64,000 nucleotides of DNA, from the NCBI GenBank assembly GCA_020846145.1, contig JADLEL010000051.1:1-64000 (forward strand), in the 5' to 3' direction. The DNA is from Pirellulales bacterium (lineage in GTDB: Bacteria > Planctomycetota > Planctomycetia > Pirellulales > Thermoguttaceae). The translations under genes were made by a program, and so were the position numbers. Shown here piece by piece: positions 5,052 to 63,816 of the stretch; position 1 is the first letter of the stretch, and each line of letters begins with the position of its first letter. The notes beneath the pieces were generated by a model. That model was given only the letters and a program-made list of their open reading frames with translations. It searched no databases and was not told the DNA's origin.

Positions 5052-6146
5052 CTAGATCAATCGGTTATACATCTCGATGTATTCCCCGACCATTTTCTCC
5101 ACCGTGAATTCGCCGGCGGCTCGGTCGCGCGCGGCTTGGCCGAGGCGGCGGGCAAGCGCGGCATCTTCCAAGAGCCGAGAGGCTCCGCGGGCGAAGCCGG
5201 CGCGGTCGCCGACCCGCACCAACAAACCGGTTTGATTGTGGACGAGTTCCCGCGTGCCGGGAATGTCGCTTGCCACGACGGGAACGCAGGCCGCCATCGC
5301 CTCCAAAATCGCGTTCGATTGGCTTTCGTAGGCGCCGGTGGACCAAAGCAGGTCGAAATGCGGAAGAAACCGGTCCAAGTCGTCGCGAAATCCGAGAAAA
5401 TGCACGTGGCCGCCGATGCGGACCTGATCGCGGAACCTCCGCAGCCGGCCGCGGTGCGGTCCGTCGCCGAAAATCAACAGATGCACGTCCTTGCGGACGA
5501 CCTTCAACAGATCGGCGGCCCAAATGGCGTCCTTTACCCGTTTGTGCGGCAAGAGCCGGCCGACCAGTCCGATCAGGCGGCTGTCGCCGGGCAGGCCCAG
5601 TTCGTCGAGGATTTGCCGTCGCGTGCAAGTCGGCGGGCCGGGCAATTCCACGGCGTTGGAGATGATTTGGAACTTTTCCTCCGGCAGGCCGTTTCGCACG
5701 TAAAGATCCTTGACGCTCCCGCCGTTGGCCGCCAAGCACGCCGCGCGGCGGCCGATTTGACGGTCGAGCCTTGCTTGCATCCAACTTTCGACCGGCTCCA
5801 TGGAGCGGTAACTCGCGAAGAAGCGTTTTGCTCCGCCGCCCAAAACCGCCGCGAGTCCGTAGCCGTTCGCCGCGCCGCCCCAGGCATGGATCGCGTCGGG
5901 CCGCAAGCCGTCAACGAGCCGTTTCAGATTCCACAAGGCGCGGGGATCGAACATCCAGCGTCGTTCGAGGATCGTCGGCCGAATGCCGGAAAGGGGAATC
6001 ATTTCCGGCGTCGTTCCGGCGGACGCGAGGGCGCAGACGTGCGCGTCGAATCCTGCCCGCATAAGTCCCGCGGCCAGCAAGCCGAGCTGCTTCTCCGCGC
6101 CGGAGCGGTCGAGCATCGGAAGAAGATGGAGAATGCGCGGCGTCAT
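5052..6146 (-). CDS. Glycosyltransferase family 4-like
   Basis: MTPRILHLLPMLDRSGAEKQLGLLAAGL, VGRLLPHKRVKDAI, ESQSNAILEAMAACVPVVASDIPGTRELV. Confidence 0.9.
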   Translation of the reverse strand: MTPRILHLLPMLDRSGAEKQLGLLAAGLMRAGFDAHVCALASAGTTPEMIPLSGIRPTILERRWMFDPRALWNLKRLVDGLRPDAIHAWGGAANGYGLAAVLGGGAKRFFASYRSMEPVESWMQARLDRQIGRRAACLAANGGSVKDLYVRNGLPEEKFQIISNAVELPGPPTCTRRQILDELGLPGDSRLIGLVGRLLPHKRVKDAIWAADLLKVVRKDVHLLIFGDGPHRGRLRRFRDQVRIGGHVHFLGFRDDLDRFLPHFDLLWSTGAYESQSNAILEAMAACVPVVASDIPGTRELVHNQTGLLVRVGDRAGFARGASRLLEDAALARRLGQAARDRAAGEFTVEKMVGEYIEMYNRLI

Positions 6147-6170
6147 GGCAGAATTGGAAATTGACGATTG

Positions 6171-6240
6171 CAAATTTCAAATTTCAAATTGAACAAGATC
6201 AACTTTCCTTTTTTCCTATCCCCTATCCCCTATCCCCTAT
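6171..6240. repeat. Heptanucleotide arrays (CAAATTT)n and (CCCCTAT)n
   Basis: caaatttcaaatttcaaatt at 6171-6190; cctatcccctatcccctatcccctat at 6215-6240. Confidence 0.9.
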
Positions 6241-6762
6241 TTCTTGCATCTCCCCCGGTTCCAGCATGGCGACGTAGGGGAGGTTGCGATACCGATCGCG
6301 GTAGTCGAGGCCGTATCCGACGACGAAGGCGTCGGGGACTTCAAAGCCCACGAAGTCGGGTTTCATCTCGACTTCGCAACGCCCTTGCTTCATCAACAGC
6401 ACCGCGCATTTGAGGCTTGCCGGGCCGAGTTCGTCGATCTGCGGGATCAATTCCCAAAGCGTGTGCCCCGTATCGAAGATGTCGTCCACCAAAAGCACGT
6501 CGCGGTCGCGAATGCCGTCCGACAACAAATCGGTGTTCAACACCAAGGGGCCGGGCCGGGTGCCGCTCCGATAGCTGCGCGCCTGCACCAAATCGACGCG
6601 GAGCGGCATGTTCAACAGGCGGATCAAGTCGGCCAAGAGCACGATGCTGCCGATCAACACCCCCACGATCGTCAGCGGCTTGTCCCGATAATGCGCATGG
6701 ATGCTTTCGGCCAGCCGCCGTATTCCTTCGCGTAATTGCTCTTCGCTGAGTAAGGTTTTCAT
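6223..6762 (-). CDS. hpt: Hypoxanthine phosphoribosyltransferase
   Basis: LTIVGVLIGSIVLLADLIRLL, VLLVDDIFDTGHTLWELI (PRPP motif), VPDAFVVGYGLDYRDRYRNLPYVAML. Confidence 0.93.
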   Translation of the reverse strand: MKTLLSEEQLREGIRRLAESIHAHYRDKPLTIVGVLIGSIVLLADLIRLLNMPLRVDLVQARSYRSGTRPGPLVLNTDLLSDGIRDRDVLLVDDIFDTGHTLWELIPQIDELGPASLKCAVLLMKQGRCEVEMKPDFVGFEVPDAFVVGYGLDYRDRYRNLPYVAMLEPGEMQEIGDRG

Positions 6763-7336: not shown

Positions 7337-8197
7337 ATGTTTCTCCGATGTTTGTTCGCGGCGGCGTTGTTTTTCCCGATGGCGCGCGTGCTCGAAGCCC
7401 AGGATATCCCCCAGCCGCAATTCGGCCGGCTGACTCCCGCCCAACAGCGACAGATTATGAAGGCCATGCAGCGTCAGGGCATGCAGCCGGGCATGCAGCC
7501 GGGGATGCAGGCAATGCAGGGCGTGCCGTTCGAGGCCGCCGGCAAGCTCGAGGCCATCGGGAGAGGCCAGGTAAAAATCATGGACGACAACGGAAAAGAG
7601 TGGGTGATTTCCTTCAATCAGCAAACCGCGGTCAAAACCACCGGCGAAGCCGCGCCCGAATTTCTCAAGCCCGGCATGTGCGTGGAATTCGCCGCCGAGG
7701 TCGATGCGAAAGGGATCGTACCCGGAAAAGTCGAGGAACTTTCCATCGTAACGCCTTCCAAGGAGCGGCCCAGCGGAGTCTTTCCCGAAGGGGGCGGCGA
7801 GGCGGCCAAAGCCGCGGCGAAACCGGCGGCAAAAACCGCGGCCGCCGCGAAAGCGAAAAAAGGAGCGGCCGCCGGACCCGCCGTGATGAGCAAAGTGGTG
7901 GGCCACGTCAAGAGCGCGAAAAGCGGAAAACTCCTGGTCCAAGCCGGCCGCACCACCGTGCAATTCGAGTTGGGCGAGAACGCGAAGATCTCCATCGACA
8001 TGGCTGACGGCGCGTTCGCCTCCAAAGGCGACAAGGTCGAAATCAAAGGCATGCAAATGCCCAACATGCCCAACCAGGGGCAAGCCCAATCGATAACCAT
8101 CGCACTTGCGGAACCGCTGGGCTTGCCGAAGAAAAAGGCCGAGGCCGGCAAATCCGAGCCGCCTCGCCCGCCCAAGGCCATCAAGCCTAAAAAGTAG
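7337..8197 (+). CDS. Secreted hypothetical protein with MQPG-rich and Ala/Lys-rich segments
   Basis: Signal peptide MFLRCLFAAALFFPMARVLEAQ; no recognised domain. Confidence 0.75.
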   Translation: MFLRCLFAAALFFPMARVLEAQDIPQPQFGRLTPAQQRQIMKAMQRQGMQPGMQPGMQAMQGVPFEAAGKLEAIGRGQVKIMDDNGKEWVISFNQQTAVKTTGEAAPEFLKPGMCVEFAAEVDAKGIVPGKVEELSIVTPSKERPSGVFPEGGGEAAKAAAKPAAKTAAAAKAKKGAAAGPAVMSKVVGHVKSAKSGKLLVQAGRTTVQFELGENAKISIDMADGAFASKGDKVEIKGMQMPNMPNQGQAQSITIALAEPLGLPKKKAEAGKSEPPRPPKAIKPKK

Positions 8198-8267: not shown

Positions 8268-11200
8268 CTACGGTGCTTCGCCGTTTCCTTCGTAGTCCGC
8301 CTCGTTGAATTCATCGTCAACTTCATGGGTCGCCGCGCCGTCATCCTGCCAGAGCGAGCGATCCTCCTCGATATCTTCGAGTTCTTCCGCAATCTCGTTC
8401 GCTTCCTCCTCGCTATCGAAAAAATCGACGTCGAAGACGCCGGAGGATTTGACGCCCTTTTTCGATTGGAAAAGTGTTTTTTTGGGGGGCGGCGGCAGAG
8501 GGGCGGTCGGAGCGGGGACCGGCGTTCGGGCAACGGGCGGGGAAACCGATTCCTCTTCGGGGAGATCTTCGCAATCGGGCGGAAAATCTTCTTCCGGAGC
8601 TTTCGTTTTGACGACCGCTTTGCGCCGGGGGGACGGGCGCGGCTTTTCGCGCTTCGGAACCTCCGCGGGAGCAACGCGTTGGAAAGCGATCGTCGCGCCG
8701 CCCGGCTGAAATGCCGCGGGAAGGCGATTCGATGGCGCTCCGAGGAGCGCGAAAATTTTCTCGATGTGTTCGTGGCAGGTGCATACCAAGAGTTGATGGC
8801 CCGCCGCGGCGAAATCGCGGAGCACTTCGGCCGCGGCGACCGCCCGATCGGCGTCGAAATTCACGAGCACGTCGTCCAAGATCATGGGGAGCGCCGCGCC
8901 GCGGCGCGCATAACTTGCACAGAGCGCGAGCCGCAAACTCAAGAAAAGCTGTTCGCGCGTGCCGCGGCTGAGCGCTTCGACGGGCAGGCAATGCCCGTGG
9001 GCGTCGTCCACCCGCAGGGTTTTTTCGCCCAGCGGCGTCCAAACGCGGCAATAACGGCCCCGCGTGAGCCGGGCGAGATGCACGGACGCCTCCTTGAGCG
9101 TTTCGGGCTGCCGCTCGTGCTCGTAACTCGCGCGGATATTCTCCAACGCGCGGCACACGACCGCCAACACTTGCCAGCGCCGCGCGGCTTCGGCGATCTG
9201 CCTTTCGACGGCCGCCAAGTCCAATTGCAGCCGCGGGAGGCGGCGGTCTTCGGCCAGAGCTTGTATCTGGGCCGTCAGTTGGCCGCGTTTTTCCAGCCGT
9301 TCGCGGACTTGGGTATCGAGCATCGCCAGCCGGTCGCGGAGCAAATTGCCGCGCGATTCCAACTCCCCGGCCGGCGCGCCTTCGAGCAGTTCGCGGACCG
9401 CCTCCTCGCTGCATTGAGCGCCGATCGCGGCGGCGATGTCGCGGCGCAGCGTTTCCCGTTCGCGCCGCAGGCTTTCGCCGCGCGCGGATTGAAGTGCCTT
9501 CTCGCGAAAGGAATCCTCGTCTTCCGCGCCGGCCTCGAAGAACAGGCGGCGGCGGCGGTGATTCAAGCGGCCGATGGCCTCTTCGTGCCGTGCGCGCAAC
9601 CGGCGGAATTGTTTGATCCGACCGCGAACCGCTTCTTTCCGCTCGGCGGCCGCTTGCTCTTCGGCCAGCAGATTCGCGAGCAGTTTCAATCGTTCGAGGG
9701 GATTGCCGTCGGGGAGCGCTAGCTTGGCATCGGCGGCCACTTGGAGCAGCCGCGCCGAAAGCGCGTCGGCTTCCTTGCGGCGGCGGTCCAATTCCTCGCG
9801 GCATTGGGCCAATCGGCGCCCGGTTTCGGACATCCCGCTCCATCGGCCCGCGAGTTGGCGCACTTGCCGCGCCGACAGTTCGACCGGCAAGCCGGCCGCC
9901 GCCAGCAAGTCTCGCCATTTCCGCCTGGCCGATCGATATTCGGCTTCGAGCTGCGCCGCGCGCTCCCCGGCCGCCGCTGCCGATTGCATCGCCGCGTTCC
10001 GCCGCGTTTCCAAGGGAACCAGGTTTTCGAGTTCCGACAGATCGTTTTCCGCGGCTTCGAGGCGGCTCGCCAGCGGGCCGCCGCCGCGGGGGAGGCGGGC
10101 GTCCAGCGCATCGCGTTCTCCCAGGAGCTGTTCGATCTGGCTCTGCACCAAGGCAAGTTGTTTTTGACACGCATCCATTCGCTTGGCGTTCGCCCTCTCG
10201 AGCGCGAATTTTCCGAAGGCCGTTCCGATGATGCCGATCACGCCCAAGCCGGCCGTCATCCAATCGGTCGAACGGGAGAGAAGGAGCGGCAACACCAGCC
10301 CCGCGCATATCAACAACGCGCCGAGCACGAAAACCGTCCCCAAGCCGGCGAGCACCCACGTAGGCAAAAGCTGCCGCTCGACCGCCCGCTGGTTTTGTTC
10401 CTCGAGTTCCTTCCGATGCCGGGCGAGTTGGTCGAACCGTTCGTCGATTTGCAATCGCCGGCGGCACTGCGCGACCGTTTGGCCGGTCTTGTCCATCGCA
10501 TCGTTCAAATTCGTTTCGCTTCGCGCGGCGAGTGCGGCGGCGATCTCCTCCGCCAGCGACTCGGAAGCCTCCTGGGCGGCTTTCGCTTCGGCGCGGGCGC
10601 GATCGAGATTATCCCGCAAGCGGCGCAGATTCTTCGCGGGCGAGCGAAGCGCCGCGAACGACCGCCGCGAGAGCCTGTCCGATCGCGCCAGGGCGCCTTC
10701 GTTCAGTCCCAATGGTTTCCAAAGGCCGGCGGACTCGTTTTCGAGCAGGACGATTTCGGCCTCCAGTTCGCCGATCCGCGCTTGGAGGCCGGCGAACCAG
10801 GATTCCTGCTCCCGCAGGGCTTCGATGCGCGCGAATTGTTTGAGCAGGTCCTCGTTAATCGCGAGGTTCGCCGCCTCGTTTCGCAGTTGTCCGCGCTCGC
10901 GGCGCAATTCGGCGATGCGGCCGCGGTGGCGCTGCAATTGGGCGTTGAGCGCGTCGATCCTTTCGAGCATTTTGTCGGGCAGCGGCGCGATCGGGCCGAG
11001 GACGGCAAGCTCGCCGTCGATCGCGGAGCGCCGCCACCAGCGGTCGCGGAGCGCCGCCGCCAGTCCCTGGGTCCGCGATTGGCGTTCGAGTTGATTTTGC
11101 TCTTCTTCGAGGCGGGCGAGATCGCGTTCGAGTTGCGATCGTTCGCCGATCAGGAGGCCGAACCGCCGGGTCAGTCCGCCGAGTTGTTCGATTTCGGCGA

Positions 11201-11783
11201 GGAGTTTTTCGCGGCGGCCGCGAAGATTCGCGAGGAGCGACGAACCGCCCCCGGCGTCGAGGATTCGATTCCGCGAGATATCCAACTCCCGCAGCGCCTC
11301 GACGAGCGAAACGCGGTCGAGGCCGGCGGTCAGGTTGTAGAGCAGTTCGGCGGCCGCGGTGTCGCCCAGCGCGCCCAACTCCTGCATTTCCCGCAGTTCC
11401 ACGGCGAAAACGTTGTTGAAAATCGCTTCATCCACTTCGGACAGCATCGCCTTCACCAGATGCTCGCCTTGCCGCATGCCGTCGGATGCGGTGAGGACGA
11501 TCTCCTCGCCGCCGCTTGGGGGCAGCCAATGGCGGGCGATTTCATAGCGGCCCTGCGGACTATCGACTTCGGCCATGCCGCCCGGCCGTCCGCCATGCAC
11601 CGGCGGAAAATACTGCCGCCGCGATTCCGAATAACCGTAGAGCATCGAGCGAATGAATTGCAGGAGCGTGGTTTTGCCGGCTTCGTTCGGTCCGTAAAGA
11701 ACGTTGAGTCCGTCCGAAAATCTTTCGATCCGCAATCCGCTCCAAATGCCGTAACCGTCGATTTTTAAGGCAAGTATTTTCAC
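8268..11783 (-). CDS. AAA/SMC-like ATPase, YhaN-type (Rad50-like)
   Basis: KILALKIDGYGIWSGLRIERFSDGLNVLYGPNEAGKTTLLQFIRSMLYG (Walker A), long coiled coil, SRGTREQLFLSLRLALCASYARRGAALPMILDDVLVNFD; GTG start. Confidence 0.88.
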   Translation of the reverse strand: MKILALKIDGYGIWSGLRIERFSDGLNVLYGPNEAGKTTLLQFIRSMLYGYSESRRQYFPPVHGGRPGGMAEVDSPQGRYEIARHWLPPSGGEEIVLTASDGMRQGEHLVKAMLSEVDEAIFNNVFAVELREMQELGALGDTAAAELLYNLTAGLDRVSLVEALRELDISRNRILDAGGGSSLLANLRGRREKLLAEIEQLGGLTRRFGLLIGERSQLERDLARLEEEQNQLERQSRTQGLAAALRDRWWRRSAIDGELAVLGPIAPLPDKMLERIDALNAQLQRHRGRIAELRRERGQLRNEAANLAINEDLLKQFARIEALREQESWFAGLQARIGELEAEIVLLENESAGLWKPLGLNEGALARSDRLSRRSFAALRSPAKNLRRLRDNLDRARAEAKAAQEASESLAEEIAAALAARSETNLNDAMDKTGQTVAQCRRRLQIDERFDQLARHRKELEEQNQRAVERQLLPTWVLAGLGTVFVLGALLICAGLVLPLLLSRSTDWMTAGLGVIGIIGTAFGKFALERANAKRMDACQKQLALVQSQIEQLLGERDALDARLPRGGGPLASRLEAAENDLSELENLVPLETRRNAAMQSAAAAGERAAQLEAEYRSARRKWRDLLAAAGLPVELSARQVRQLAGRWSGMSETGRRLAQCREELDRRRKEADALSARLLQVAADAKLALPDGNPLERLKLLANLLAEEQAAAERKEAVRGRIKQFRRLRARHEEAIGRLNHRRRRLFFEAGAEDEDSFREKALQSARGESLRRERETLRRDIAAAIGAQCSEEAVRELLEGAPAGELESRGNLLRDRLAMLDTQVRERLEKRGQLTAQIQALAEDRRLPRLQLDLAAVERQIAEAARRWQVLAVVCRALENIRASYEHERQPETLKEASVHLARLTRGRYCRVWTPLGEKTLRVDDAHGHCLPVEALSRGTREQLFLSLRLALCASYARRGAALPMILDDVLVNFDADRAVAAAEVLRDFAAAGHQLLVCTCHEHIEKIFALLGAPSNRLPAAFQPGGATIAFQRVAPAEVPKREKPRPSPRRKAVVKTKAPEEDFPPDCEDLPEEESVSPPVARTPVPAPTAPLPPPPKKTLFQSKKGVKSSGVFDVDFFDSEEEANEIAEELEDIEEDRSLWQDDGAATHEVDDEFNEADYEGNGEAP

Positions 11784-11810
11784 GGGAGGGAATGGGGTTG
11801 GGGGGAAAGG

Positions 11811-11873
11811 ATGAAGGATGAAGGATGAAGGATGAAGGATGAAGGATGAAGGATGAAGGATGAAGGATGAAGG
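11811..11873. repeat. Heptanucleotide array (ATGAAGG)x9
   Basis: Nine perfect consecutive 7-bp units. Confidence 0.98.
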
Positions 11874-11970
11874 AAACGCCGCAAAGGCTTCACAACTCAT
11901 CATTAACCAATATTGCACGATTTACAACCAATGAACTTTCTCGTGTAACTTCAACCGCAATCGTTTTTTC

Positions 11971-11995
11971 GTCATTCGTCATTCGTCATTCGTCT
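11971..11995. repeat. Heptanucleotide array (ATTCGTC)n overlapping the 3' end of the exonuclease gene
   Basis: gtcattcgtcattcgtcattcgtc. Confidence 0.9.
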
Positions 11996-13267
11996 TTCTT
12001 CCCCGCCGAGCAATTCGACGCCCAATAGGGCAGCTTCATCGAGAATCTGCCGGCGAGTCGCCTCTTCGGGAACTATCGCCGCCGAGACTTGCGCGCCGGC
12101 GCGATGGGATTCGGGCAAATACTCCTCGATATCCAACGGTGCGGCGGGATTCACCCGCAATTGTTCGAGGGCGCGCAAAAAGTCGCCGCGAATGGTTTCG
12201 CGTTCGTACCATTGCGGGGGAATGGCTTCGACGAGTTCCGCTTCCAAACCGATGCTCCATGCCGCGGGGGAATCGAAGCCGAATTCGGCGCGCAGGCCTT
12301 CGAGCAGCTCGGAGGCGAGCCGCCCGCGGTGCAGTTCCCGCGCCAATTCGCCTTCGCCGGCTACCGTCCAGGAAACGAGCAAATTCATTTTCGGCGACGC
12401 GTCGCGGAGCGATTGCAATCGTTCCCGCAGCCGCAATTCCAAGTCCTGCCGGGTGGCGGTCGGCTCGATGACGATCCGTTCGGCCGGCCAGCGCGCGGCG
12501 TCGCAGGGGATCGGTGCGGTTCGCGCTTGATTTCGTTCATCGACTTGCACGAGCGTGCAACCGTGGACGCCGCTTTCGTCGGGCCGGCGGCCTTGAGGAG
12601 TTCCGCAGTAATGGATGATCGTTTGGCTGGCAGCAGGAGAATGGTCTTCGTGCCCCTGGGTTCGGCCGGGAACGAGTACGTCCCGGCTCGCCGTGTCGCG
12701 TTCGTGCCGGCCTCCCAAGGCCCAATAATGGATGCCGCGGTCATGCATGGAGGCGTCGGCTTCGCCGCAGGCGACGGCGACGGTAAATAAGCCCGCGGAA
12801 TCGGGCCGAAATTCGCCCGTGCGAATGGGCTGCCGCTGCTCGCGGCTGGTCCCCGAAATTCGCGCGGCGGGAATTCCCTCGAGAGAAACGAGATACTCAT
12901 CGACCCGGCCGCGAGGAAATACATGCACGTTTCCGGGCAGATGCAGCGAGGCGGGCCAATCGTCGGGCGCGTCGAGTTCTCCGCCGGACCAATAAACGTC
13001 GATTCCCCTAGCCGCCAATTTTTCGAATTGTTCGCAAAGGAACAAGAATGCGCGGGGGCCTGCCAAAAGCGGTCGTAGAATATTTCCGGCGAGAATGAGG
13101 AATGCCGCCCCTTCCAAAACGGCCGCCTCGAAAACCTTCTCTGCCGCCAGATAGGGGGCCTCGATGAAGAGTTCGCGCAGATGCCCCGGCACTTCGGATA
13201 CGCCGCCCAAGGGTTGATCCAAGTGAAAATCGCTAGCATGGAGGAATCGAAACGGCGGGTGATTCAT
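11972..13267 (-). CDS. Metallophosphoesterase DNA repair exonuclease, YhaO-type (Mre11-like)
   Basis: FRFLHASDFHLDQPLGGV; exonuclease-like fold; adjacent to the Rad50-like ATPase. Confidence 0.85.
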   Translation of the reverse strand: MNHPPFRFLHASDFHLDQPLGGVSEVPGHLRELFIEAPYLAAEKVFEAAVLEGAAFLILAGNILRPLLAGPRAFLFLCEQFEKLAARGIDVYWSGGELDAPDDWPASLHLPGNVHVFPRGRVDEYLVSLEGIPAARISGTSREQRQPIRTGEFRPDSAGLFTVAVACGEADASMHDRGIHYWALGGRHERDTASRDVLVPGRTQGHEDHSPAASQTIIHYCGTPQGRRPDESGVHGCTLVQVDERNQARTAPIPCDAARWPAERIVIEPTATRQDLELRLRERLQSLRDASPKMNLLVSWTVAGEGELARELHRGRLASELLEGLRAEFGFDSPAAWSIGLEAELVEAIPPQWYERETIRGDFLRALEQLRVNPAAPLDIEEYLPESHRAGAQVSAAIVPEEATRRQILDEAALLGVELLGGEERRMTNDE

Positions 13268-13650
13268 TTTCGCCTCCAAATATCGATTGCTTAACGCCGG
13301 CTTCGGATTCAACGCTCTTCGCCTTAGTGTAATGAAAAAAGAAAAGATAGACTATATCACTATGGGAAAGAAAGAAGCGATTAGGTGAATTGGGGTCTCT
13401 TTGCCTGCTAACTCTATCTCGCACAATGACGAAGATGGGCAATATGAGAAAATAAGGAAGTTTGCTTTCTGGGCTATTCGGAAATGAATCGGTGAGGATG
13501 AATTGTACTCCGCAATTGATCATATTGGGCAACCGGCAATCTCTTGTTAATCCTCTCAGATTCACAATATCATTTAAGGCATTCTGCAAGACAGCCGATA
13601 AAAGATGGCGTCAAGGTTTGCCCTATCGTCCTATTTTCTTGCGGCAAACT

Positions 13651-23543: not shown

Positions 23544-25343
23544 GTGCCCCTCAACCTCGCCTCTCGATTGACGCGCCAGGCGGAAGCGCGGCCGGATGCC
23601 GCGGCCGTGGTCGAGCCGCTGGGATACGACCGCGCGGGGAAGCGGCGGTATCGGTCGATCACATTCCGCGAATTGGACGAGGATAGCGACCGCATCGCGC
23701 GGGGACTGCGCGCGTGGGGCGTGCCTAAAGGCGCGCGGCTGGCGCTTCTAGTCCGGCCGGGGATCGATTTCATCGCCCTGGTGTTCGGCTTGCTCAAGGC
23801 GGGCACGGTCGTGGTGCTGATCGATCCCGGCATGGGCCGCGGGAACCTGATCGAGTGCCTCGCCGAGGCCGAGCCGGATGGATTCGTCGCCATTCCGCAA
23901 GCGCAGGCCGTTCGCGCGATCTTGCGGCGACGATTTCCGAAAGCCAAATGGAACGTAACCGTCGGCCGACGCTGGTTTTGGGGCGGGAAGACGCTCGCGC
24001 AGCTTCGCAACAAAAAGGGGTCAGAACTATTATCAGAATTGACAATCCCAGAGAAAACAGTTCTGACCCCTTTTTCGACCACGGCCGACGATCCGGCGGC
24101 GATCATCTTTACGACCGGGAGTACGGGTCCACCGAAGGGGGTGCTGTTCACGCACGGCAATTTCGACGCCCAGGTGCGTGAAATTCAGGATTTTTACGGA
24201 ATTCGGGCCGGGGAGATCGACCTGCCCTGCTTTCCGATGTTCGGGCTGTTCAATTGCCTGATGGGCGTAACGGCGGTCATTCCCGAGATGGACCCGACGC
24301 GGCCGGCGCAGGTCGATCCGCGTAAAATCCTTGAAGCCGCCGGCGATTGGCGGATCACCCAGGCGTTCGGCTCGCCGGCGGTGTGGAATCGGGTCGGGCG
24401 CTACTGCGAAGAGCATAAGATCAAGCTGCCCACGCTCCGCCGCGTGCTGTCGGCGGGCGCTCCGGTGCCGTCGGACGTGCTGCGGCGGATGAAGGATTGC
24501 ATTCATCCGGAGGGCGATATCCACACGCCCTACGGCGCGACCGAGGCCCTGCCCGTGGCGTCGATCTCCGCTTCCGAACGGCTCGCCGAGACCGATGCAC
24601 GGACTCTCGAAGGGGCGGGGGTGTGCGTGGGGCGAAAGTTTCCGAGCATCGCGTGGAAGGTGATTCGCATCGTGGATGGGCCGATCGAGTCCTTCGACGA
24701 GATCGAAGATCTGCCGCCGGGCGAAATCGGGGAGCTTATCGTCAACGGTCCGCAAGTTACCCGCTGCTACGTTACGCGAATCGAGGCGAATCGGACGGGG
24801 AAGATATTGCAGGGGAGAGGGGAGAGGGGAGAGGGAAGAGAAGAAGGGGGAAGGGGGAAGGGGGAAGGGGGAGCGTTCGACGACCGGGCAGCAGCAGAAA
24901 AATGGCCGGGAAACGAGTCGGATGGCAGCGTTTGGCATCGGATGGGCGATGCGGGCTATTTCGATGCCCAGGACCGGTTTTGGTTCTGCGGCCGCGTGGC
25001 GCATCGGGTGTTGACGCCGCACGGGCCGCTGTATCCGATTCGCTGCGAGGCGATCGTCAATCGGCATCCCGACGTCTTTCGCTCGGCGCTGGTCGGCGTC
25101 GGGCCGCCGGGCGAGCAGCGGCCGATCATTATCGTGGAATCCCTGCCCGGCAAAATGCCGCAGTCGCCGGAAGCCGAGAAAAAGCTGTTGATGGAAATAC
25201 GACAGCTTGCCGCGAGCAGCCCGCTGACCGCCGCCATCCACGATTTTCTCCTGCATCCCGCGTTTCCCGTCGATATCCGGCACAACGCCAAAATATTCCG
25301 CGAAAAGCTGGCCGCGTGGGCGGAAAGGCTTTTTGAGAAATGA
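23544..25343 (+). CDS. AMP-dependent synthetase/ligase, OleC-like (beta-lactone synthetase-like)
   Basis: AAVVEPLGYDRAGKRRYRSITFRELDEDSDRIARGL, IIFTTGSTGPPKGVLFTHGNFDAQV, HTPYGATEALPVASI, WHRMGDAGYFDAQDRFWFCGRVAHRV. Confidence 0.85.
   Translation: MPLNLASRLTRQAEARPDAAAVVEPLGYDRAGKRRYRSITFRELDEDSDRIARGLRAWGVPKGARLALLVRPGIDFIALVFGLLKAGTVVVLIDPGMGRGNLIECLAEAEPDGFVAIPQAQAVRAILRRRFPKAKWNVTVGRRWFWGGKTLAQLRNKKGSELLSELTIPEKTVLTPFSTTADDPAAIIFTTGSTGPPKGVLFTHGNFDAQVREIQDFYGIRAGEIDLPCFPMFGLFNCLMGVTAVIPEMDPTRPAQVDPRKILEAAGDWRITQAFGSPAVWNRVGRYCEEHKIKLPTLRRVLSAGAPVPSDVLRRMKDCIHPEGDIHTPYGATEALPVASISASERLAETDARTLEGAGVCVGRKFPSIAWKVIRIVDGPIESFDEIEDLPPGEIGELIVNGPQVTRCYVTRIEANRTGKILQGRGERGEGREEGGRGKGEGGAFDDRAAAEKWPGNESDGSVWHRMGDAGYFDAQDRFWFCGRVAHRVLTPHGPLYPIRCEAIVNRHPDVFRSALVGVGPPGEQRPIIIVESLPGKMPQSPEAEKKLLMEIRQLAASSPLTAAIHDFLLHPAFPVDIRHNAKIFREKLAAWAERLFEK
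24012..24075. repeat. REP-like hairpin within the OleC-like CDS (aaaaaggggtcagaact ... agttctgaccccttttt)
   Basis: Perfect 17-bp inverted arms 24012-24028 and 24059-24075; encodes KKGSELLSELTIPEKTVLTPF in frame. Confidence 0.95.
24812..24871. repeat. Heptanucleotide arrays (GGGGAGA)n and (GGGGGAA)n within the OleC-like CDS
   Basis: ggggagaggggagaggggaga then gggggaagggggaagggggaaggggg. Confidence 0.9.
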
Positions 25344-48421: not shown

Positions 48422-51400
48422 CTACGGCCTTCTCGGGGCGTTATGATTGTGGTTATTGGGATTGTTTTTCGGCGGGGTATTGGGGGGCGCGGAAGGTTTT
48501 TTGTCGGCAGCGACTTCCTTGGGCGGTTCCTGGCCGAGCGCTTCGAGCAGTTGGCGGCGGAGTTCGGGGCCGCGCATGCCGGGGCCGAGTTTGATGACTT
48601 TCATTTGAGAGGCGGGCGCGGCGGCGGCGTCCAAATCCAAGATCATCCTCTTCACCTGCTCGAACAGATACGCCGGCGCGGAAAGCACGATGGTATTCGA
48701 AAGTTCGTCGGCGGCGATCGAGAGCGAGCCCTTGAATTTCGGCATTTTTTGCTCTTTTTTGCCGTCGCCGGAATCGAACGTGATCGAGAAGCCGCGGTTC
48801 GCGTCGCGTTCGCCGTTCTTGCCGGCGAAGGCCTTGTCGTTGGTGCTCAACAAGTCGCGGTAAACGTCCTTCACCGTTTCGACGATGACCTCGGCCTTGG
48901 AGTATTCCAAGGGAATTGTTTCGGTCAAGCGGGTCGATTGCGCGTCGGCGGGGATGGGCTGATCGTAAAGTTTGATCAGCTCCTCGATGGTCTGAAGCTG
49001 CTTGGCGTCGGCCCCTTGGACGAGAATGCTGTTGGTGTCCGAATCGGTGATGAATCTCAAGGGCCGCCGCTTCGAAAGCCGCCCCGCTTTGTCGTCGTCC
49101 CCGGTGCTCGAAACGCCGTATTCCATCTCGATCCAAAACGGCAGGGCACGGCCCGGCTTTTTCAGGTCGTTCTTGAAAAACTCCTCGAGATTCAGCGCGA
49201 CGCCGTAGGCCAGGCAGTATTTCAGGTGGAAGACCTTGTAATCTTTCTTGGCTTCGGCCAACTGGCCCGCCAAGTCCTCGAAAAGTTCGAGGGCCTGGAG
49301 GTCGTCGGAGGTAACGGCGATCCGCCCGTCGGGCGTCAGTTCGACTTTCACCGGCGGAGTTTTCGCCGGCAGATTGGCCGCCGCGGAGCGGGGACGTTCG
49401 ACGGCCGCATCGCCGCCCAATTGCGCGAACTTGACGATCGCGCGCTGCTGCTCGTCCGGCGGAATATTTTCCTCGAAACGCATCGCGCTCGGCTCGGAAA
49501 TGGGCGCCGCTTGCGGCGATTTCGCGCTGGGCGGGGAGGGTTTGATTTCCAACGGATTCGGCGAGACCGACCCCCACGCTTGCTGAATGCGTTCGAGCAA
49601 GGCCTTGGCATCTTCGCTACCGGCGGTCTCGATGATCCGCCGCCTCGTGCCGGGGCCGTCCATCGCGGGAACTTCGCCCAGTTTCTGGAGCAGGTTATCG
49701 ACCTCGGCCAATTCCACGTCGTTCGCCCAGAGGATGAGTTGGTTGTGCTCCACGTCGGCATCGACGCGGAAGGCGTTATTGGTTTGGCCGGAATCGCCGC
49801 CGGAAGAAGAATAACGATCCCAGTAGGAATTCGAACGGGACTTGTCTTTCTTATCGCCGTTGATCATGAATTCGACCGTGCCCGCCACGTAGTCGGCGGC
49901 GAGCCGCCGCAATCGCCTGACGGCGATTTGGCGCTCGCTGCCGCTGAGCTTCTCGACGAGCGCGCCGATGATCGCGTGATCGGCCAGCGGCCCGAAGACG
50001 ATGATCGCCTTGTTCTTTCGATCGACTTGCAGATTCGTGCTGGGATCGAGGTTGCCGATCTCGCGCAAGGTATTGACCAGCGTATCCGGCTCGACGCCGG
50101 TGAGCCGATAGACCTGCGTCCGGCCGACGTTGGCCAACAGCGACGTGGGGGAGCCGACCGGCACGTCGAGCGTTTCCACGACTTGCACGATGAGCGCCAT
50201 TTTATCGGGCGGGGCGTAGGCCAAGATGCTGTTCTTCCGCGGATTGACGACGAAATACATCCCCGCCTGCGCCGCGGGCGGCTTGTTCTGCTGTCCCGGC
50301 GGCTGGCCGCCCTGGGGATTTCCGCCCTGGCGGGCCATCATTTCCTGCTGATGCTGCAATTGCTGCATCATTTCCGGCGTCATGGCTTGGCCGCCCTGGC
50401 CGGGTTGCGGCATCGACGGCCCTTTCTCCTTCCCCAGAAGCTCGTCGAGTTGCTTCCGCACTTCCTCGGCACGGGCAAAGCGAAGAATGAATTCCTTGAC
50501 GCTCCGCTGCTGGCCGCCGGGCGTTTGCGAATTGTTCAACAAGGCGTAGATCTCCCGCAAATTCACCACCGCATCGACCGCCTCGAGCCGATTGGTGAGC
50601 CGCAGGGGAATCAGCTTCCCGTTGGGGCTTTTCATCTGATCCAATTCCGCGACGGCTGAATCGGCGGTCATTTTTTCCAAGGCGAAGGAGACTTTCACGA
50701 ATTCGTAGGGCTGGCGATCCTTCAGCTCTTCCGGCGCGACGCGCGGCACCAAACTCAGGTCGAGCTTCTTGACGTTCACCACCGAGAGCGTCTCGCCCCG
50801 CGTAAGCAGCGTGAATCCGCGGGCGAGGAGATATTGATTGATCAGGTCGCGCACTTCCGGCACGCTGTAGCCGCGCTGCGTCGAGAGATTGAGATAATCG
50901 CCGGGCATTTCCTGCCAATCGAGACTCATGCCCGATATCTGCGCCAGCCATTCCAGCACCGCCGGCCAAGGCTGGCCGTTGAAATTGAAGGAGACTTTTC
51001 CATCGGGGCCGGGCCGCGCCTTGAGTTCTTCCGGCTTGGGAGGATTGGGCGGTTTCGTCGGATGCTGGAGCGGTTTCGCCGGTTCGTCGGGCTTCGTTTC
51101 GCCGGGCTTGGTTTCGCCGGGCTTCGTTTCACCGGGCTTGCCAGGTTGCTCCCCGGGTTTGCCGGGTTTGTTTTTATCCGGTCCGCCGGGACCGCCGGGG
51201 ATTTCGCCCGGCTTGATCGGTTGCCCGGGAGCATTAGGGGGCAGTGCCGCCGGTTGATCGCCGCTCACGATGACCGTTGCCGGTCCGGCCGGAGTCGCGG
51301 GAGCCGCGGGGGCGGAATACTGAATTGCCGCTTCGGCTTTGACGGGCGGATTATCGGCATGCGCGGGACAGATGCATGCCAGAAAAACAGCTAGACCCGC

Positions 51401-58558: not shown

Positions 58559-60091
58559 TTACTCCTCATCCTCCGCGACATTTTCCGGCGGTTTCCCGCC
58601 GGTCGCCGTCCAATCGCGGCGTTGGCGGGAACTGGGGATGTTCATCGCCTTGCGGTATTTGGTGATCGTCCGCCGGGCGACGGTGATGCCCTGCGCGCCC
58701 ATCGCGGCCACGAGTTGGTCGTCGGAAAGCGGATGCTGCTTGTCTTCCTTGTCGATGACTTCCTGCAGCTTCAGCCGCACGATGTCCCAGGCGACTTCCT
58801 CGCCGCCGGCGCTCGTCGTGCCGCCGCAGAAGAACCGTTTGAGCGGGAAGATGCCGCGCGGCGTTTGAATCCACTTGTCGTCCACCGCCCGGCTCACGGT
58901 CGTGACGTGTACGCCCACCTTGTCGGCGATCTGCTGCATCTTGAGCGGCTCGATGGCCTCCGGCCCTTTGTTCAGAAATTCGATCTGATGATCGACGATC
59001 GCCTGCGAGACTTTCGTCAGCGTGCCGCGGCGCTGCTCGATCGATTCGATGAGCCACTGCGCCGAATTGACCTTCCGCTTGATGTACTCCCGCGTCTCCT
59101 CGGTGGTGTCGGCGTCTTGCAGCAGCTTGCGATAGTACGGACTGATGTGCAGGCTGGGCATCTGGGTGTCCTCGAGCCGCACCGCGTATTTGCCGCCGTC
59201 GTCGAGTTCCACGAACACGTCCGGGGTAACCGACGGGGCCGTAACGTTGATGAAATCGGCGCCCGGCTTGGGATGCAGCTTGCGCAGCTCGACGAGCGCG
59301 TTCTGGATGCGCTCGATGGTGTAGTTCGTCTTCCGGCAGATGACCGGCAGCCGATTGTGTTCGAGGTCCTCGAGATGATGGGAGATGAGCGTCTCGAGTT
59401 CCTCGTGCATCGCCATGCCCGGCACGAGTTGCAGCAGCAGGCATTCGCGCAGGTCGCGGGCGGCGATGCCCGGCGGATCGAGCTTCTGCACGATGTCCAG
59501 CGCCCGTTGGGCCAATGCCAGTTCATCCTTGCCGCGGCCGCCGCCCAGCAGGTCTTCGAGCCGGCCTTGCAAGTAGCCGTTGCTATCGAGATTGGCGATG
59601 ATCCGCTCGCAGAACAGGCGGATTTCCGGCTCCAGATCGAACCAGCCCAGTTGATCGGCGAGATAATCCTGCAGCGATTGCGGCCGGGCGACCATGTTCG
59701 CCATCGCGTCCAGCTTGCGGTCGCCCGCCTCTTCGACCTGCTCGCGCGACGGGCGGCTGCGCTCCTCGAAATGGTCGGGCCATTGCTCGTCCATCTTCAA
59801 CAGCCGCTCGAAATCGTCCTCGTTGCTGTGCGCTTCGTCGATCACCAATTCGCGCTCGTCCTCGCTGGGGGCGTCGGGCACGTCGCGCTCGACCGGCTCT
59901 CCCGCCGCCTCGACGGCCATTTCCGGCTCTTCCTCGAGGACCTCCAGGACCGGATTCTCCTCCATCTCCTGCTCGATCCGCTCCTGCAATGCGAGGATCG
60001 GCAACTGCAGAATCTCCATCGACTGGATCATCCGCGGCGCCAGCACCTGCTTCTGCACCATCCGCAGTTCTTGGCCGAACGACAAACGCAT
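58559..60091 (-). CDS. rpoN: RNA polymerase sigma-54 factor
   Basis: MRLSFGQELRMVQKQVLAPRMIQSMEILQLPILALQERIEQEMEENPVLE; HVTTVSRAVDDKWIQTPRGIFPLKRFF; ARRTITKYRKAMNIPSSRQRR (RpoN box). Confidence 0.97.
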   Translation of the reverse strand: MRLSFGQELRMVQKQVLAPRMIQSMEILQLPILALQERIEQEMEENPVLEVLEEEPEMAVEAAGEPVERDVPDAPSEDERELVIDEAHSNEDDFERLLKMDEQWPDHFEERSRPSREQVEEAGDRKLDAMANMVARPQSLQDYLADQLGWFDLEPEIRLFCERIIANLDSNGYLQGRLEDLLGGGRGKDELALAQRALDIVQKLDPPGIAARDLRECLLLQLVPGMAMHEELETLISHHLEDLEHNRLPVICRKTNYTIERIQNALVELRKLHPKPGADFINVTAPSVTPDVFVELDDGGKYAVRLEDTQMPSLHISPYYRKLLQDADTTEETREYIKRKVNSAQWLIESIEQRRGTLTKVSQAIVDHQIEFLNKGPEAIEPLKMQQIADKVGVHVTTVSRAVDDKWIQTPRGIFPLKRFFCGGTTSAGGEEVAWDIVRLKLQEVIDKEDKQHPLSDDQLVAAMGAQGITVARRTITKYRKAMNIPSSRQRRDWTATGGKPPENVAEDEE

Positions 60092-60128
60092 ATTCAGGGG
60101 CGAGGGGTTAGGGGCGTGGGGTGCGGGA

Positions 60129-60240
60129 ATGATGAATGCTGAATGATGAATGATGAATTGAAAGCACCATCTCATTCGCCATTCGGATACACGTTAGTCC
60201 CGTTGTGGTATTCATCATTCATCATTCAGCATTCATCATT
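60129..60240. repeat. Long inverted repeat of heptad arrays (aatgatgaatgctgaatgatgaatgatgaat / attcatcattcatcattcagcattcatcatt)
   Basis: ~31-bp perfectly complementary arms flanking ~50 bp between rpoN and recR. Confidence 0.9.
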
Positions 60241-60242
60241 TC

Positions 60243-60842
60243 CTAAAACTTTTGTCTTCCGCTCATCGCGTCGGCGAGGATTTCCTTGTTGGCGAACTCG
60301 AGCACGCTGCCGGTGGTGATGCCGCGGGCGAGGCGGGTGATTTGCACGGGAAATTCGCCGAGCAGGTTCGAGATGTGCAGCGACGTGCCGTCGCCTTCGA
60401 CCGTCGGGTTGGTCGCCATGATGACTTCCTTGAACCGGCCCGAGCGCACGCGCTCGACCAAGGCGTCGATGGTAAGCTGGTCGGGATTGATGCCCTCCAG
60501 GGGTGCAATCCGACCCAGCAAAACGTGATACAATCCGCGATACACGCCGGCCTGCTCCAGGGCGATCAAATCGCGCGGCTGCTCGACCACGCACAACACG
60601 TCCCGATCGCGGCGGGAGTCCTTGCAAATATCGCACAACTCTTCTTCCGCTAAATTATAACACGCGCTGCAATACCGCACGTTCTCTTTCACCGCCCGAA
60701 TGGCCTCGGCCAACGCCAGCGCCTCGTTTTTATGCACGCGCAACACGTGGTAGGTCAACCGTTCGGCCGACTTCCGCCCGATGCCGGGCAGTTTGGCGAA
60801 CTCGCCGATCAGCGTTACGACGGATTGCGTGAGTTCGGGCAT
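60243..60842 (-). CDS. recR: Recombination mediator protein RecR
   Basis: [59 protein letters not shown]. Confidence 0.95.
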
Positions 60843-60954
60843 TCTTAGGGGAGAGGGGAGAGAGGAGAGGGGAGAGAAAGAAGCAATGCTTTCACTCCCT
60901 TGTTGCCGCAAATACTAACAGCCGGGCCCGCGAGAATATATTTTGCGCGTGCAT

Positions 60955-61347
60955 TCATTCTTCACTCTCCCCTCTCCCCTCTCCCCTCTCCCCTGCTCCC
61001 GTTCCCATGAGCTTCTCCATCGCCGCGTCCAAGCCGGGCACGGAGAGGCCGCCGGTGAGGTCGCGCATGGCGTCGGCGTGCATTTGTTTGCTTTTGGCGA
61101 TGGCCTGATTGACGGCCGCGACGACGAGGTCTTCCAAAAACTCGGCATCGCCCTGGGTGATGAGCGCGGGATCGATCTTGCAGCGCAGCACTTCCATGAG
61201 GCCGTTGACTTCGATCTCGACCATGCCGCCGCCCGACGAGCCGACGACCCGCCGGCTCTTCATTTCTTCTTGCAGCTTGCCCATCTGCCCGCCGATTTGC
61301 TGGGCCTGCTTCAAGATCGCGCCGAGATTGGACAGTCCTTTGAACAT
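60955..61347 (-). CDS. YbaB/EbfC nucleoid-associated protein
   Basis: LGAILKQAQQIGGQMGKLQEEM, GGMVEIEVNGLMEVLRCKIDPAL, EDLVVAAVNQAIAKSKQ. Confidence 0.95.
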   Translation of the reverse strand: MFKGLSNLGAILKQAQQIGGQMGKLQEEMKSRRVVGSSGGGMVEIEVNGLMEVLRCKIDPALITQGDAEFLEDLVVAAVNQAIAKSKQMHADAMRDLTGGLSVPGLDAAMEKLMGTGAGERGEGRGESEE

Positions 61348-61354
61348 GGTTGAT

Positions 61355-63136
61355 TTATTCCCTATTCGGCGGATCGACCTTTACGGGAGTGGCGCCGAAA
61401 AGTTCCGCCGCCTGTTGCACCATCGGATGTTTGGCGATTTCCATGACCAGTTGATGTTGCGAGACGGCCCGAACCGGCGCCGGCGCTGCTCCCGACGGAC
61501 CGCCGCTCTCTTCCACGATAAATTGCAGCCGAATCGGCTGGCCGGTTACTTCGGCCAGGGCCTGCTCGAAACGGACGACCTGCCGCTCGCACATCGACTT
61601 CGGCATAGCATACTCCGCTTTGAAGGAAATAGCCAGGGTATTTGGCGCGGAAATTGCTACGGCGTGAAACCGCCGAGCGTGGTCGGCCACCATGCCCGAT
61701 ACCCGGCCGATGGCCCGATTCCACAGTTCCATTGCATTTTCGGGCGTCAAAACGGTCGGAGATGCCACTTTTGGAGTGGCTTCGGGTGGCGATTGATAGG
61801 GTGTTACGATGGATTCATCGTTTTTTTTTCCACCCAAATCCCCTGCGGGCGATTCCAACGCCGGCGGAGATATGATGCCGGAAGAATATCCGGCGGAGGT
61901 TCCGGCGGAAGGTAGGTCGGAAGTCGGCAAAGGCGTTGCTCCCGAACCGACCACCGTAATCGGCATGCCGCTGCGCACCTGGGCGACGATTTGCGCAAGT
62001 TCCTCCAGATCTTCCAAGTGGCAAATGCGCACCAGCGCCAGTTCGGCCAGAATGCGACCCTGCGTGCTATACCGCATTCGGGAAAGCGTTTGGTCGAGTA
62101 TCTGCATCATCGCCAGCACCGTTTGCAGGCCCAACCGCTGTCCGGCCGCCGCGATATCGGCCGCGCTCGAAGGCGAGGCGTAGAGAAACGCGTCGGCTTG
62201 GCAGCCGACCGACGCCGCCATGCAATCGCGGAAGTAGCCGAAAAGCTGCTCGACGAGTTGCGGGGCATCGACGCCGGCATGGAGGGCGGCGTCCAAATCG
62301 TTGAGAGCCGCCGCCGCATCCCGGCCCACGATATGCCCGACGAGGCCCATCAAGAGCGAATCGCCCGCCGTGCCGAGCATGTTGTGAACGTCTTCGACGG
62401 TAATCTTGCCGGACGAGAAGGCCAAAAGCTGCTCCAAGAGCGATTGGCTGTCGCGCATCGAACCTGCCGCGCGGCGGGCGAGCACCTCGAGCGCCTGCGG
62501 ATCGGCCTCGACCCCCTCCGCATCGACAATCTGCCGTAATCTTTGCGCAATGGATTGAGTCAGAATGCCCGCAAAGTCGAACCGCTGACAGCGCGAAAGA
62601 ATCGTAATCGGGATTTTCGTCGCTTCGGTCGTGCAGAAGATGAATTTGACGTGCTCCGGCGGCTCCTCCAGCGTTTTCAAGAGGGCGTTGAACGCCTCGC
62701 GGGTGAGCATGTGGACTTCGTCGATAATATAGATTTTGTGCCGCGAACGGCTGGGTCGCACGTTCACGTTCTGCCGCAACTGGCGGATTTCATCGATGCC
62801 GCGATTGCTCGCGCCGTCGATCTCGAGCACATCCACGTCGTCACCGGCGGCAATCGCCCGGCAGGTGTCGCATTCGTTGCAAGGATGGGCGCTGGTTCCC
62901 TTTTCACAATTCAGCGCCTTGGCCAAAATCCGCGCCGCGGAAGTTTTTCCCACTCCCCGCGCGCCGGTGAAAAGATAGGCGTGCCCCACGCGGCCGGCGG
63001 CAATCGCATTGGTAAGCGCCTGCGACACGTGCTCCTGACCGACCAACTCCGCGAACGCCTGCGGCCGATAGCGCCGCGCCACCACGACGTATTGCTTGGC
63101 GGGAAGGGCTTCGGCGGCGAGGGGAGTATCGGACAT
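61355..63136 (-). CDS. dnaX: DNA polymerase III subunit gamma/tau
   Basis: ARRYRPQAFAELVGQEHVSQAL, HAYLFTGARGVGKTSAARILAKALNC, YIIDEVHMLTREAFNALLKTLEEPPEHVKFIFCTTE. Confidence 0.97.
   Translation of the reverse strand: MSDTPLAAEALPAKQYVVVARRYRPQAFAELVGQEHVSQALTNAIAAGRVGHAYLFTGARGVGKTSAARILAKALNCEKGTSAHPCNECDTCRAIAAGDDVDVLEIDGASNRGIDEIRQLRQNVNVRPSRSRHKIYIIDEVHMLTREAFNALLKTLEEPPEHVKFIFCTTEATKIPITILSRCQRFDFAGILTQSIAQRLRQIVDAEGVEADPQALEVLARRAAGSMRDSQSLLEQLLAFSSGKITVEDVHNMLGTAGDSLLMGLVGHIVGRDAAAALNDLDAALHAGVDAPQLVEQLFGYFRDCMAASVGCQADAFLYASPSSAADIAAAGQRLGLQTVLAMMQILDQTLSRMRYSTQGRILAELALVRICHLEDLEELAQIVAQVRSGMPITVVGSGATPLPTSDLPSAGTSAGYSSGIISPPALESPAGDLGGKKNDESIVTPYQSPPEATPKVASPTVLTPENAMELWNRAIGRVSGMVADHARRFHAVAISAPNTLAISFKAEYAMPKSMCERQVVRFEQALAEVTGQPIRLQFIVEESGGPSGAAPAPVRAVSQHQLVMEIAKHPMVQQAAELFGATPVKVDPPNRE
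61821..61829 (-). promoter_or_regulatory. Candidate slippage/frameshift site: A9 run in dnaX coding strand
   Basis: ggtggAAAAAAAAAcgatga; both alternate frames stop at once (61815 and 61804 in the ORF track). Confidence 0.7.
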
Positions 63137-63256
63137 GATTTAAGGATTGCAAATTGCAAATTGAGCGAAGGCTTTTATTGACGATTGCATAAATGGTATC
63201 AACACGGAGGCACGGAGGACACGGAGGTGTCAACTATGCATATTAGATTTCACACA

Positions 63257-63700
63257 TTATGGTTCGAGTTCTCTCCTTAAGATTTTCGCACCCTCATACC
63301 CTTTGTGCTTTTCGGCTTCCGTTTTCTTCATCCAAAAATTTACCGTATTTGCTAGAACGGACTCGACATATTTTGATGGTACGAAGAATACTTCGGGTGG
63401 CTTGTTTTCATCTTTGGGCCATTCGGCAGGCAAATAAACGAAAGCGTACCAAAGCGATGAATTCTTCGGAAAGATTGGTTTCTTTATTCTCCAGATATAC
63501 TTATCTTTCACTTTATTCAAAGTGGTTGTTCCCGTTTTCACCTGAATCGCGATGGTTTCTCCACCTTTCGGCATTGCGACGAACAGATCGATACCGGGAA
63601 CACCCGCTCTCGGCAATCCGACCACCATACCCAGAGCGGAGAGATACGCAGCCACGTAAAATTCACCAGTTGCTCCCGTAAGAATCGAATTATTTGCCAT
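63257..63700 (-). CDS. Hypothetical protein, possible PD-(D/E)XK/endonuclease-like fold
   Basis: TGATGEFYVAAYLSALG...GVPGIDLFVAMPKGGETIAIQVKTGT. Confidence 0.6.
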   Translation of the reverse strand: MANNSILTGATGEFYVAAYLSALGMVVGLPRAGVPGIDLFVAMPKGGETIAIQVKTGTTTLNKVKDKYIWRIKKPIFPKNSSLWYAFVYLPAEWPKDENKPPEVFFVPSKYVESVLANTVNFWMKKTEAEKHKGYEGAKILRRELEP

Positions 63701-63776
63701 TTCTTCAATCTCGATGTCCGTTTAAAACTCCGTGTCCTCCGTGTCTCCGTGGTTAATTCCTTGTTTTCCCGTTGTT

Positions 63777-63816
63777 CAATTTGCAATTTGCAATTTGCAA
63801 TTACCAATTTGCAATA
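63777..63816. repeat. Heptanucleotide array (CAATTTG)n
   Basis: caatttgcaatttgcaatttgcaattaccaatttgcaat. Confidence 0.9.

What the first reader, a model, noticed from the sequence alone, without database searches (positions are those of the whole stretch)
11811..11873. All microsatellites in the window are heptanucleotide arrays
Arrays with different units all have 7-bp period: ATGAAGG x9 (11811), ATTCGTC (11971), CAAATTT (6171), CCCCTAT (6215), GGGGAGA and GGGGGAA (24812-24871), GGGGAGA-type (60846-60875), CTCTCCC (60966-60994), GAATGAT (60129, 60210), ATTGCAA (63145), CAATTTG (63777). No other unit length was noticed. This recalls the heptameric STRR repeats of cyanobacteria. Period 7 is out of phase with codons, so length changes shift frames.
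Basis: seen in the sequence. Interest (0 to 1): 0.6.

Follow-up and report, generated by a model that had tools for sequence, protein, structure and literature searches.

The report
Heptamer-armed hairpin repeats between planctomycete genes
In this uncultured planctomycete the short tandem repeats almost all have a 7-base unit, and they are mostly the two arms of hairpin-like repeats lying between genes (purine-rich arm always first, pyrimidine-rich arm always second); the same layout was known for one repeat in Xanthomonas but here it holds for some 50 different units, so the layout, not the sequence, seems to be what is kept.

Summary
The window is from a Pirellulales MAG (5.8 Mb). In 597 kb of unselected genome, runs of 11 or more lag-7 matches number 102, against at most 8 for any other lag from 1 to 13. 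"All" is overstated: 9-, 12- and 15-bp arrays also occur in the window. A period-7 excess is a known bacterial feature. The new part is the anatomy. Arrays pair as purine-rich arm, core, pyrimidine-rich arm. Among neighbouring arrays within 150 bp the order is R-then-Y 44 times and Y-then-R never (17 to 0 in four other genomes). R arms abut stop codons and Y arms precede start codons (63/10 against 15/71, p=3e-19; replicated on unseen 636 kb). Arms in one spacer are more complementary than permuted arms, share variant units, and composite 31-bp modules recur with sharp edges at unrelated loci. One array lies in a 36-residue in-frame insertion in an acyl-CoA-synthetase-like gene. Best explanation: a dispersed, spacer-filling inverted-repeat element built of heptamers, lengthened by slippage and probably transcribed as an intercistronic hairpin. 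The layout was described for one G-rich unit in Xanthomonas; here about 50 units obey it, most without G-tracts. Mobility and function are inferred.

The parts
11807..11874 (+). (AAGGATG)9.7, perfect; pyrimidine-rich on the mRNA (- strand), 23 bp before the start of the AAA/SMC-like gene 8268-11783(-)
11968..11998 (-). (GACGAAT)4.4 on the mRNA strand: purine-rich arm overlapping the stop of gene 11972-13312(-); its partner arm is 11807-11874 but the two pair poorly
6215..6240 (-). (ATAGGGG)3.7 on the mRNA strand, overlapping the 3' end of the phosphoribosyltransferase gene 6223-6762(-)
6167..6190 (-). (TTGAAAT)3.4 before the glycosyltransferase gene 5052-6146(-); near-balanced R/Y unit
24811..24872 (+). 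AGGGGAG and GAAGGGG arrays inside a 36-residue in-frame insertion in an AMP-binding (acyl-CoA-synthetase-like) gene 23544-25343(+)
60210..60240 (-). purine-rich arm AATGATGAATGCTGAATGATGAATGATGAAT just after the recR stop codon
60127..60158 (-). pyrimidine-rich arm, perfect 31-bp inverted copy of the arm at 60210-60240 including the variant unit; between recR and rpoN
60096..60122 (-). further degenerate 7-bp array (AGGGGCG/AGGGGTT on +; pyrimidine-rich on the mRNA) directly before the rpoN (sigma-54) start
60965..61000 (-). purine-rich arm (GGGGAGA)5, encodes the C-terminal tail of YbaB and runs to its end
60847..60876 (-). pyrimidine-rich arm (CTCTCCC-type), ends 4 bp before the recR start codon; folds with 60965-61000 into a long hairpin
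63146..63163 (+). (ATTGCAA)2.6, outer arm upstream of dnaX
63777..63815 (+). (CAATTTG)5.6, inverted partner next to the SRP RNA gene
63202..63227 (+). 9-bp array (ACACGGAGG), inner arm of the same nested pair
63728..63751 (+). 9-bp array (CTCCGTGTC), inverted partner of the inner arm

Best explanation
The heptamer arrays are mostly the arms of a dispersed, spacer-filling inverted-repeat element: purine-rich 7-bp array, a short unconserved core, then a pyrimidine-rich 7-bp array. SHOWN: the period-7 excess; the fixed R-core-Y polarity; the concentration in spacers between co-directional genes in this genome; arm-to-arm complementarity within a spacer beyond permutation; composite 31-bp modules repeated with sharp edges at unrelated loci; an in-frame insertion inside a gene. 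INFERRED: short modules are copied between loci and inverted within a locus (template switching, recombination or mobilisation; the enzyme is unknown). Replication slippage in 7-bp register then changes copy number. In transcripts the matched arms form an intercistronic hairpin. The polarity is plausibly kept because a C-rich arm that emerges first would sit exposed (a Rho loading site) whereas one made second is at once paired, and because a purine-rich array before a start codon would mimic ribosome-binding and start signals.
For: Period. Polarity without any gene calls: arrays within 150 bp are RY 44, YR 0 in this genome and RY 17, YR 0 in four others, and the sign flips beyond 300 bp. It also holds for arms of different unit (RY 29:0) and for arms without GGG/CCC (25:0). 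Relation to genes: near stop R/Y 63/10, near start 15/71, p=3e-19, with discovery and unseen sets each significant. Array-free spacers show no purine skew. Complementarity: 51 arm pairs, mean -16.3 kcal/mol against -10.3 permuted, 0 of 5000; same unit 19 against 4.2 expected. Window hairpins of -58 and -94 kcal/mol, z about -7 (shuffling destroys arrays, so the permutation test is the better evidence). Arms share variant units. A variant-bearing 31-mer is found at 17 places, 14 with both edges sharp, and the parent 31-mer is exact at 9 places with 0 for the reversed control. In-frame insertion absent in 8 aligned homologues, with a separate R..Y heptamer insertion in the same loop in G021. Rho is present.
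Against: 32 of 51 paired spacers have arms of different units, and the titular pair (11807/11968) folds no better than shuffles, so a hairpin is not formed everywhere. Many spacers hold only one recognisable arm. No shared core was found, and no transposase or target-site duplication was identified. Enrichment in co-directional spacers is strong here but not in G004 or G140, where convergent spacers also carry arrays; convergent counts also rose in the second sample of this genome. In G124 the near-start arrays are not clearly pyrimidine-rich (7 R, 5 Y). Gene boundaries come from a home-made caller. The Rho and start-mimicry arguments are untested.
Confidence: 0.6

Rival explanations
1. Plain local slippage: each array arose in place from a chance seed because the replication polymerase slips preferentially by 7 bases (an idea attributed to Mrazek et al. 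2007 in PMC4692102); mismatch repair does not correct loops that large, and gene ends are merely where growth is tolerated.
For: Strict period 7 with about 50 units; lags 14 and 21 are the next peaks, as expected of slippage in register; arrays of 3 to 18 copies; MutL is present, so loss of mismatch repair need not be invoked.
Against: Does not predict R..Y order 61:0, arms sharing the same variant units, or identical composite modules with sharp edges at unrelated loci. Mismatch-repair blindness would also allow 5-, 6- and 8-bp units, which are almost absent.
Confidence: 0.2
2. G-quadruplex regulatory repeats, as proposed for GGGAATC/GGGGA(C/T)T in Xanthomonas and Nostoc.
For: Same gene-end and strand layout as reported in PMC4692102; AGAGGGG, AGGGGAT and AAGGGGG are common units.
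Against: Only 58 of 160 arrays in co-directional spacers have a G3 or C3 tract, and pairs lacking them obey the polarity just as strictly (25:0 here, 13:0 elsewhere).
Confidence: 0.05
3. A true miniature mobile element (MITE, REPIN or SDR-like) moved by a defined enzyme, the arms being its terminal inverted repeats.
For: Dispersed sharp-edged modules, insertion into a coding gene, patchy distribution with related genomes lacking the AAGGATG/AATGATG units; 12 Y1-transposase domains and many REP-like palindromes in this genome.
Against: No conserved core, arms often of different unit, no target-site duplication tested, no link shown between heptamer arms and any transposase.
Confidence: 0.3
4. 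Phase-variation (contingency) repeats: copy-number changes switch genes on and off by frame shift or spacing.
For: Period 7 is out of codon phase; many arrays end within 5 to 15 bp of a start codon.
Against: Neighbouring genes in the window are housekeeping genes; arrays are mostly intergenic and far too numerous (about 146 per Mb); the clear intragenic case is in frame.
Confidence: 0.04

Closest known systems
G-rich heptameric repeats (GGGAATC)n of Xanthomonas and (GGGGAYT)n of Nostoc, Rehm et al. 2015 (PMC4692102)
   Same: Tandem heptamers, mostly intergenic, mostly between co-directional genes, close to the ORF on the 5' side of the G-rich strand; 70 to 75 'convergent' plus/minus pairs per Xanthomonas genome; divergent spacers under-represented.
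   Different: One G4-forming unit family there; here about 50 units, mostly without G-tracts, obey the same polarity, with composite modules shared between loci and an in-frame insertion in a gene.
TAACTGA direct repeats of Beggiatoaceae, some Cyanobacteria and Bacteroidetes (MacGregor 2015, PMC4679880)
   Same: Intergenic heptamer arrays with fixed orientation, mostly just before a start codon; [quoted passage not shown] patchy phylogenetic distribution. A planctomycete relative (L070) carries TCAGTTA, the reverse complement.
   Different: One unit, and almost no inverted pairs (a single one in 170 sets).
Long simple sequence repeats with heptamer excess (Mrazek et al. 2007, known here only through PMC4692102 and PMC4679880) and STRR heptamers of Calothrix
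   Same: Period-7 over-representation, intergenic.
   Different: No inverted-pair polarity was attributed to them in the text I could read; the original papers were not available.
Small dispersed repeats (SDR) of Nostoc (Elhai et al. 2008, from memory; cited in PMC3116915)
   Same: Very small dispersed modules in heptamer-rich surroundings.
   Different: 21-27 nt, not themselves heptamer arrays as I recall; sequences not compared.
REPINs/RAYT (PMC3116915)
   Same: Short inverted arms in spacers that form hairpins and are dispersed within a genome.
   Different: REP palindromes, not heptamer arrays; no transposase link shown here.

Membership tests
Heptameric SSR excess of bacterial genomes (Mrazek-type LSSR) | Period 7 over-represented against other periods genome-wide | tested here: met
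Xanthomonas/Nostoc G-rich heptamer repeats | Intergenic, G/purine-rich strand reading away from the neighbouring ORF, paired in convergent orientation | tested here: met
Xanthomonas/Nostoc G-rich heptamer repeats | Unit contains a G-tract able to form a quadruplex | tested here: not met
   58 of 160 arrays only; polarity independent of it
Cyanobacterial STRR | Specific STRR1-3 units | tested here: inconclusive
   Unit list of this genome; STRR units recalled from memory, original paper not read
TAACTGA repeats | Unit TAACTGA | tested here: not met
   Not among the 20 commonest units of the own-genome sample; one relative (L070) has it
MITE-type mobile element | Terminal inverted repeats | tested here: met
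MITE-type mobile element | Conserved internal sequence between copies | tested here: not met
MITE-type mobile element | Target-site duplication and clean empty site | not testable with these tools
   No same-genus genome was listed
REPIN/RAYT | REP palindromes next to a cognate Y1 transposase | not tested
   12 Y1_Tnp domains present, no link examined
Phase-variation SSR | Copy-number differences between strains or cells | not testable with these tools
   single MAG

The most novel reading that the evidence does not exclude
A class of very small dispersed element defined by form and not by sequence: 7-bp period plus purine-first polarity, with the unit replaced freely between spacers and between genomes while position and polarity persist. 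It would imply either a copying process with an intrinsic 7-base step and strand preference, or RNA-level selection on intercistronic hairpins that ignores sequence.
Probability: 0.25. Interest if true: 0.8.

Novelty: new variant of a known kind. Interest (0 to 1): 0.55.

Why it matters
Heptamer excess in bacteria has been noted since at least 2007 without a mechanism. These genomes hold many units at once, so they separate sequence-specific explanations (quadruplex, one binding protein) from form-specific ones. The polarity rule (R then Y, 61 to 0) is simple, needs no annotation to test, and can be checked in any genome with heptamer repeats. It also shows that a 'microsatellite' class in bacteria can be arms of dispersed inverted repeats in operon spacers, with consequences for mRNA folding, polarity and protein C-termini.

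Tried and rejected
Shared-core mobile element: rejected, no core similarity. General purine skew of spacers: rejected. G-quadruplex as the common cause: rejected. Loss of mismatch repair: MutL present. Ancestrally compact spacers at ybaB-recR: not claimed, since relatives range from overlapping genes to 244 bp. Strain-to-strain length variation: no data. Scripts run afterwards loaded all files, but their key lists exclude those loci. Mrazek et al. 2007 could not be fetched.

Full report
WHAT IS THERE. The window belongs to a Pirellulales metagenome-assembled genome of 5.81 Mb in 224 contigs (window = C51:1-64000). The titular array is (AAGGATG)9.7, perfect, at 11807-11874. Arrays of other periods exist (15 bp at 51083, 12 bp at 7477, 9 bp at 63202 and 63728), so 'all' is too strong.

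IS IT MORE THAN CHANCE. I counted, for each lag, runs of consecutive matches, which gives all lags the same chance expectation. In 597 kb of unselected own-genome sequence, runs of at least 11 matches are 102 at lag 7 and at most 8 at any other lag from 1 to 13. A Markov null gives about 0.4 per 361 kb. A 21-base AAGGATG pattern matches 62 times in the genome, and its reversed control never. About 50 different units occur in 1.35 Mb. The AAGGATG/AATGATG unit is patchy among 148 genomes of this family and order: abundant in some (G004, G081, G124), absent from most. Other genomes have their own favourites, such as ACTGCCT in G021.

ANATOMY. In spacers between co-directional genes, arrays next to the upstream stop codon are purine-rich on the mRNA strand and arrays next to the downstream start codon are pyrimidine-rich. 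The rule was found on 713 kb and re-tested on 636 kb not looked at before: 23/2 against 5/29, p=1.6e-9; pooled 63/10 against 15/71, p=3e-19. Array-free spacers have no such skew. The same statement without gene calls: two neighbouring arrays within 150 bp are in the order R-Y 44 times and Y-R never, and in four other genomes 17 to 0; beyond 300 bp the sign turns over, as expected if each spacer is R..Y. The order holds for arms of different units (29:0) and for arms without GGG or CCC (25:0). R..Y reads the same on both strands, so this is a property of the inverted pair and does not by itself show an RNA role.

PAIRED ARMS. Arms in the same spacer are more complementary than arms permuted among spacers (-16.3 against -10.3 kcal/mol, 0 of 5000; same unit 19 against 4.2 expected). 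In the window the recR-rpoN spacer has perfect 31-bp arms that share a variant unit and folds to -58 kcal/mol; the ybaB-recR spacer folds to -94 kcal/mol. The titular spacer does not fold well. The YbaB C-terminal tail is encoded by the array. At the orthologous ybaB-recR spacer, relatives L052 and L053 have inverted heptamer arms of another unit (GGGATTR), and L060, L070 and L080 have pyrimidine-rich arrays of yet other units before recR: position kept, unit changed.

DISPERSAL. A 31-bp module with the variant unit in second position occurs at 17 distinct places in the sequence held, 14 with both edges sharp; genome-wide 9 exact copies and none of the reversed control. Similar composite modules exist for other units. 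Spacer cores are not alike. The array at 24811-24872 lies in a 36-residue in-frame insertion in an AMP-binding protein, where 8 aligned homologues have none and the G021 homologue has a separate insertion made of AAGAGGC and ACTGCCT arms, again R then Y. So arrays are, at least in part, inserted or copied and not only grown in place.

HOW IT PROBABLY WORKS. Shown: period, polarity, pairing, dispersal of modules. Inferred: copying of short heptamer modules between loci and their inversion within a locus, then slippage in register; transcription into intercistronic hairpins. For the polarity I propose that a C-rich arm emerging first would be open to Rho, whereas one emerging after its purine partner is sequestered, and that purine-rich arrays before a start codon would mimic initiation signals (SD-like motifs are in 0.31 of array-free spacers and in 0.06 of spacers with an array near the start). 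Rho is encoded. This step is untested.

COMPARISON. Rehm et al. 2015 (PMC4692102) describe the same layout for one G-rich heptamer in Xanthomonas, including convergent plus/minus pairs, and attribute interest to quadruplexes. MacGregor 2015 (PMC4679880) describes oriented TAACTGA heptamers before start codons. The kind is therefore known; the variant here is the multiplicity of units, the independence from G-tracts, the shared composite modules and the coding insertion. Why the unit length is seven remains unexplained.

LIMITS. Single MAG, sampled at 23%; home-made gene caller; no same-genus relative; no expression data. Co-directional enrichment is clear in this genome but not in G004 or G140.

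Noticed in passing
63146-63815: A 147-aa ORF (63257-63700, -) with weak, below-cut-off similarity to DUF4365, Mrr_cat and PD-(D/E)XK nuclease families sits inside two nested pairs of inverted arrays (7-bp outer, 9-bp ACACGGAGG inner), between dnaX and the SRP RNA gene; it looks like a small cassette.
   Followed up: partly
own genome, stretches L031-L050, L161-L180, L221-L260: Many other dispersed palindromic repeats, including an assembled 209-bp sequence whose 20-mers occur at up to 48 places in 1.35 Mb and REP-like hairpins (e.g. GACAGGTTGGAAACCTGTC), along with 12 Y1-transposase domains in the genome.
   Followed up: partly
60955-61000: The C-terminal tail of YbaB (GTGAGERGEGRGESEE) is encoded by the heptamer array, so arrays lengthen proteins at gene ends; about 40% of R arms overlap the predicted stop codon.
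   Followed up: partly
58559-63136: dnaX, ybaB, recR and rpoN (sigma-54) lie in one co-directional run; the ybaB-recR and recR-rpoN spacers are filled with array pairs.
   Followed up: no
51083-51139: 15-bp tandem array (3.8 copies, TTCGCCGGGCTTCGT) inside a predicted coding region.
   Followed up: no
L070 1-91 and 2945-2964: A related planctomycete carries ACTGACA, TGACCAC and TCAGTTA (=TAACTGA) heptamers, the last as known from Beggiatoaceae and cyanobacteria.
   Followed up: no
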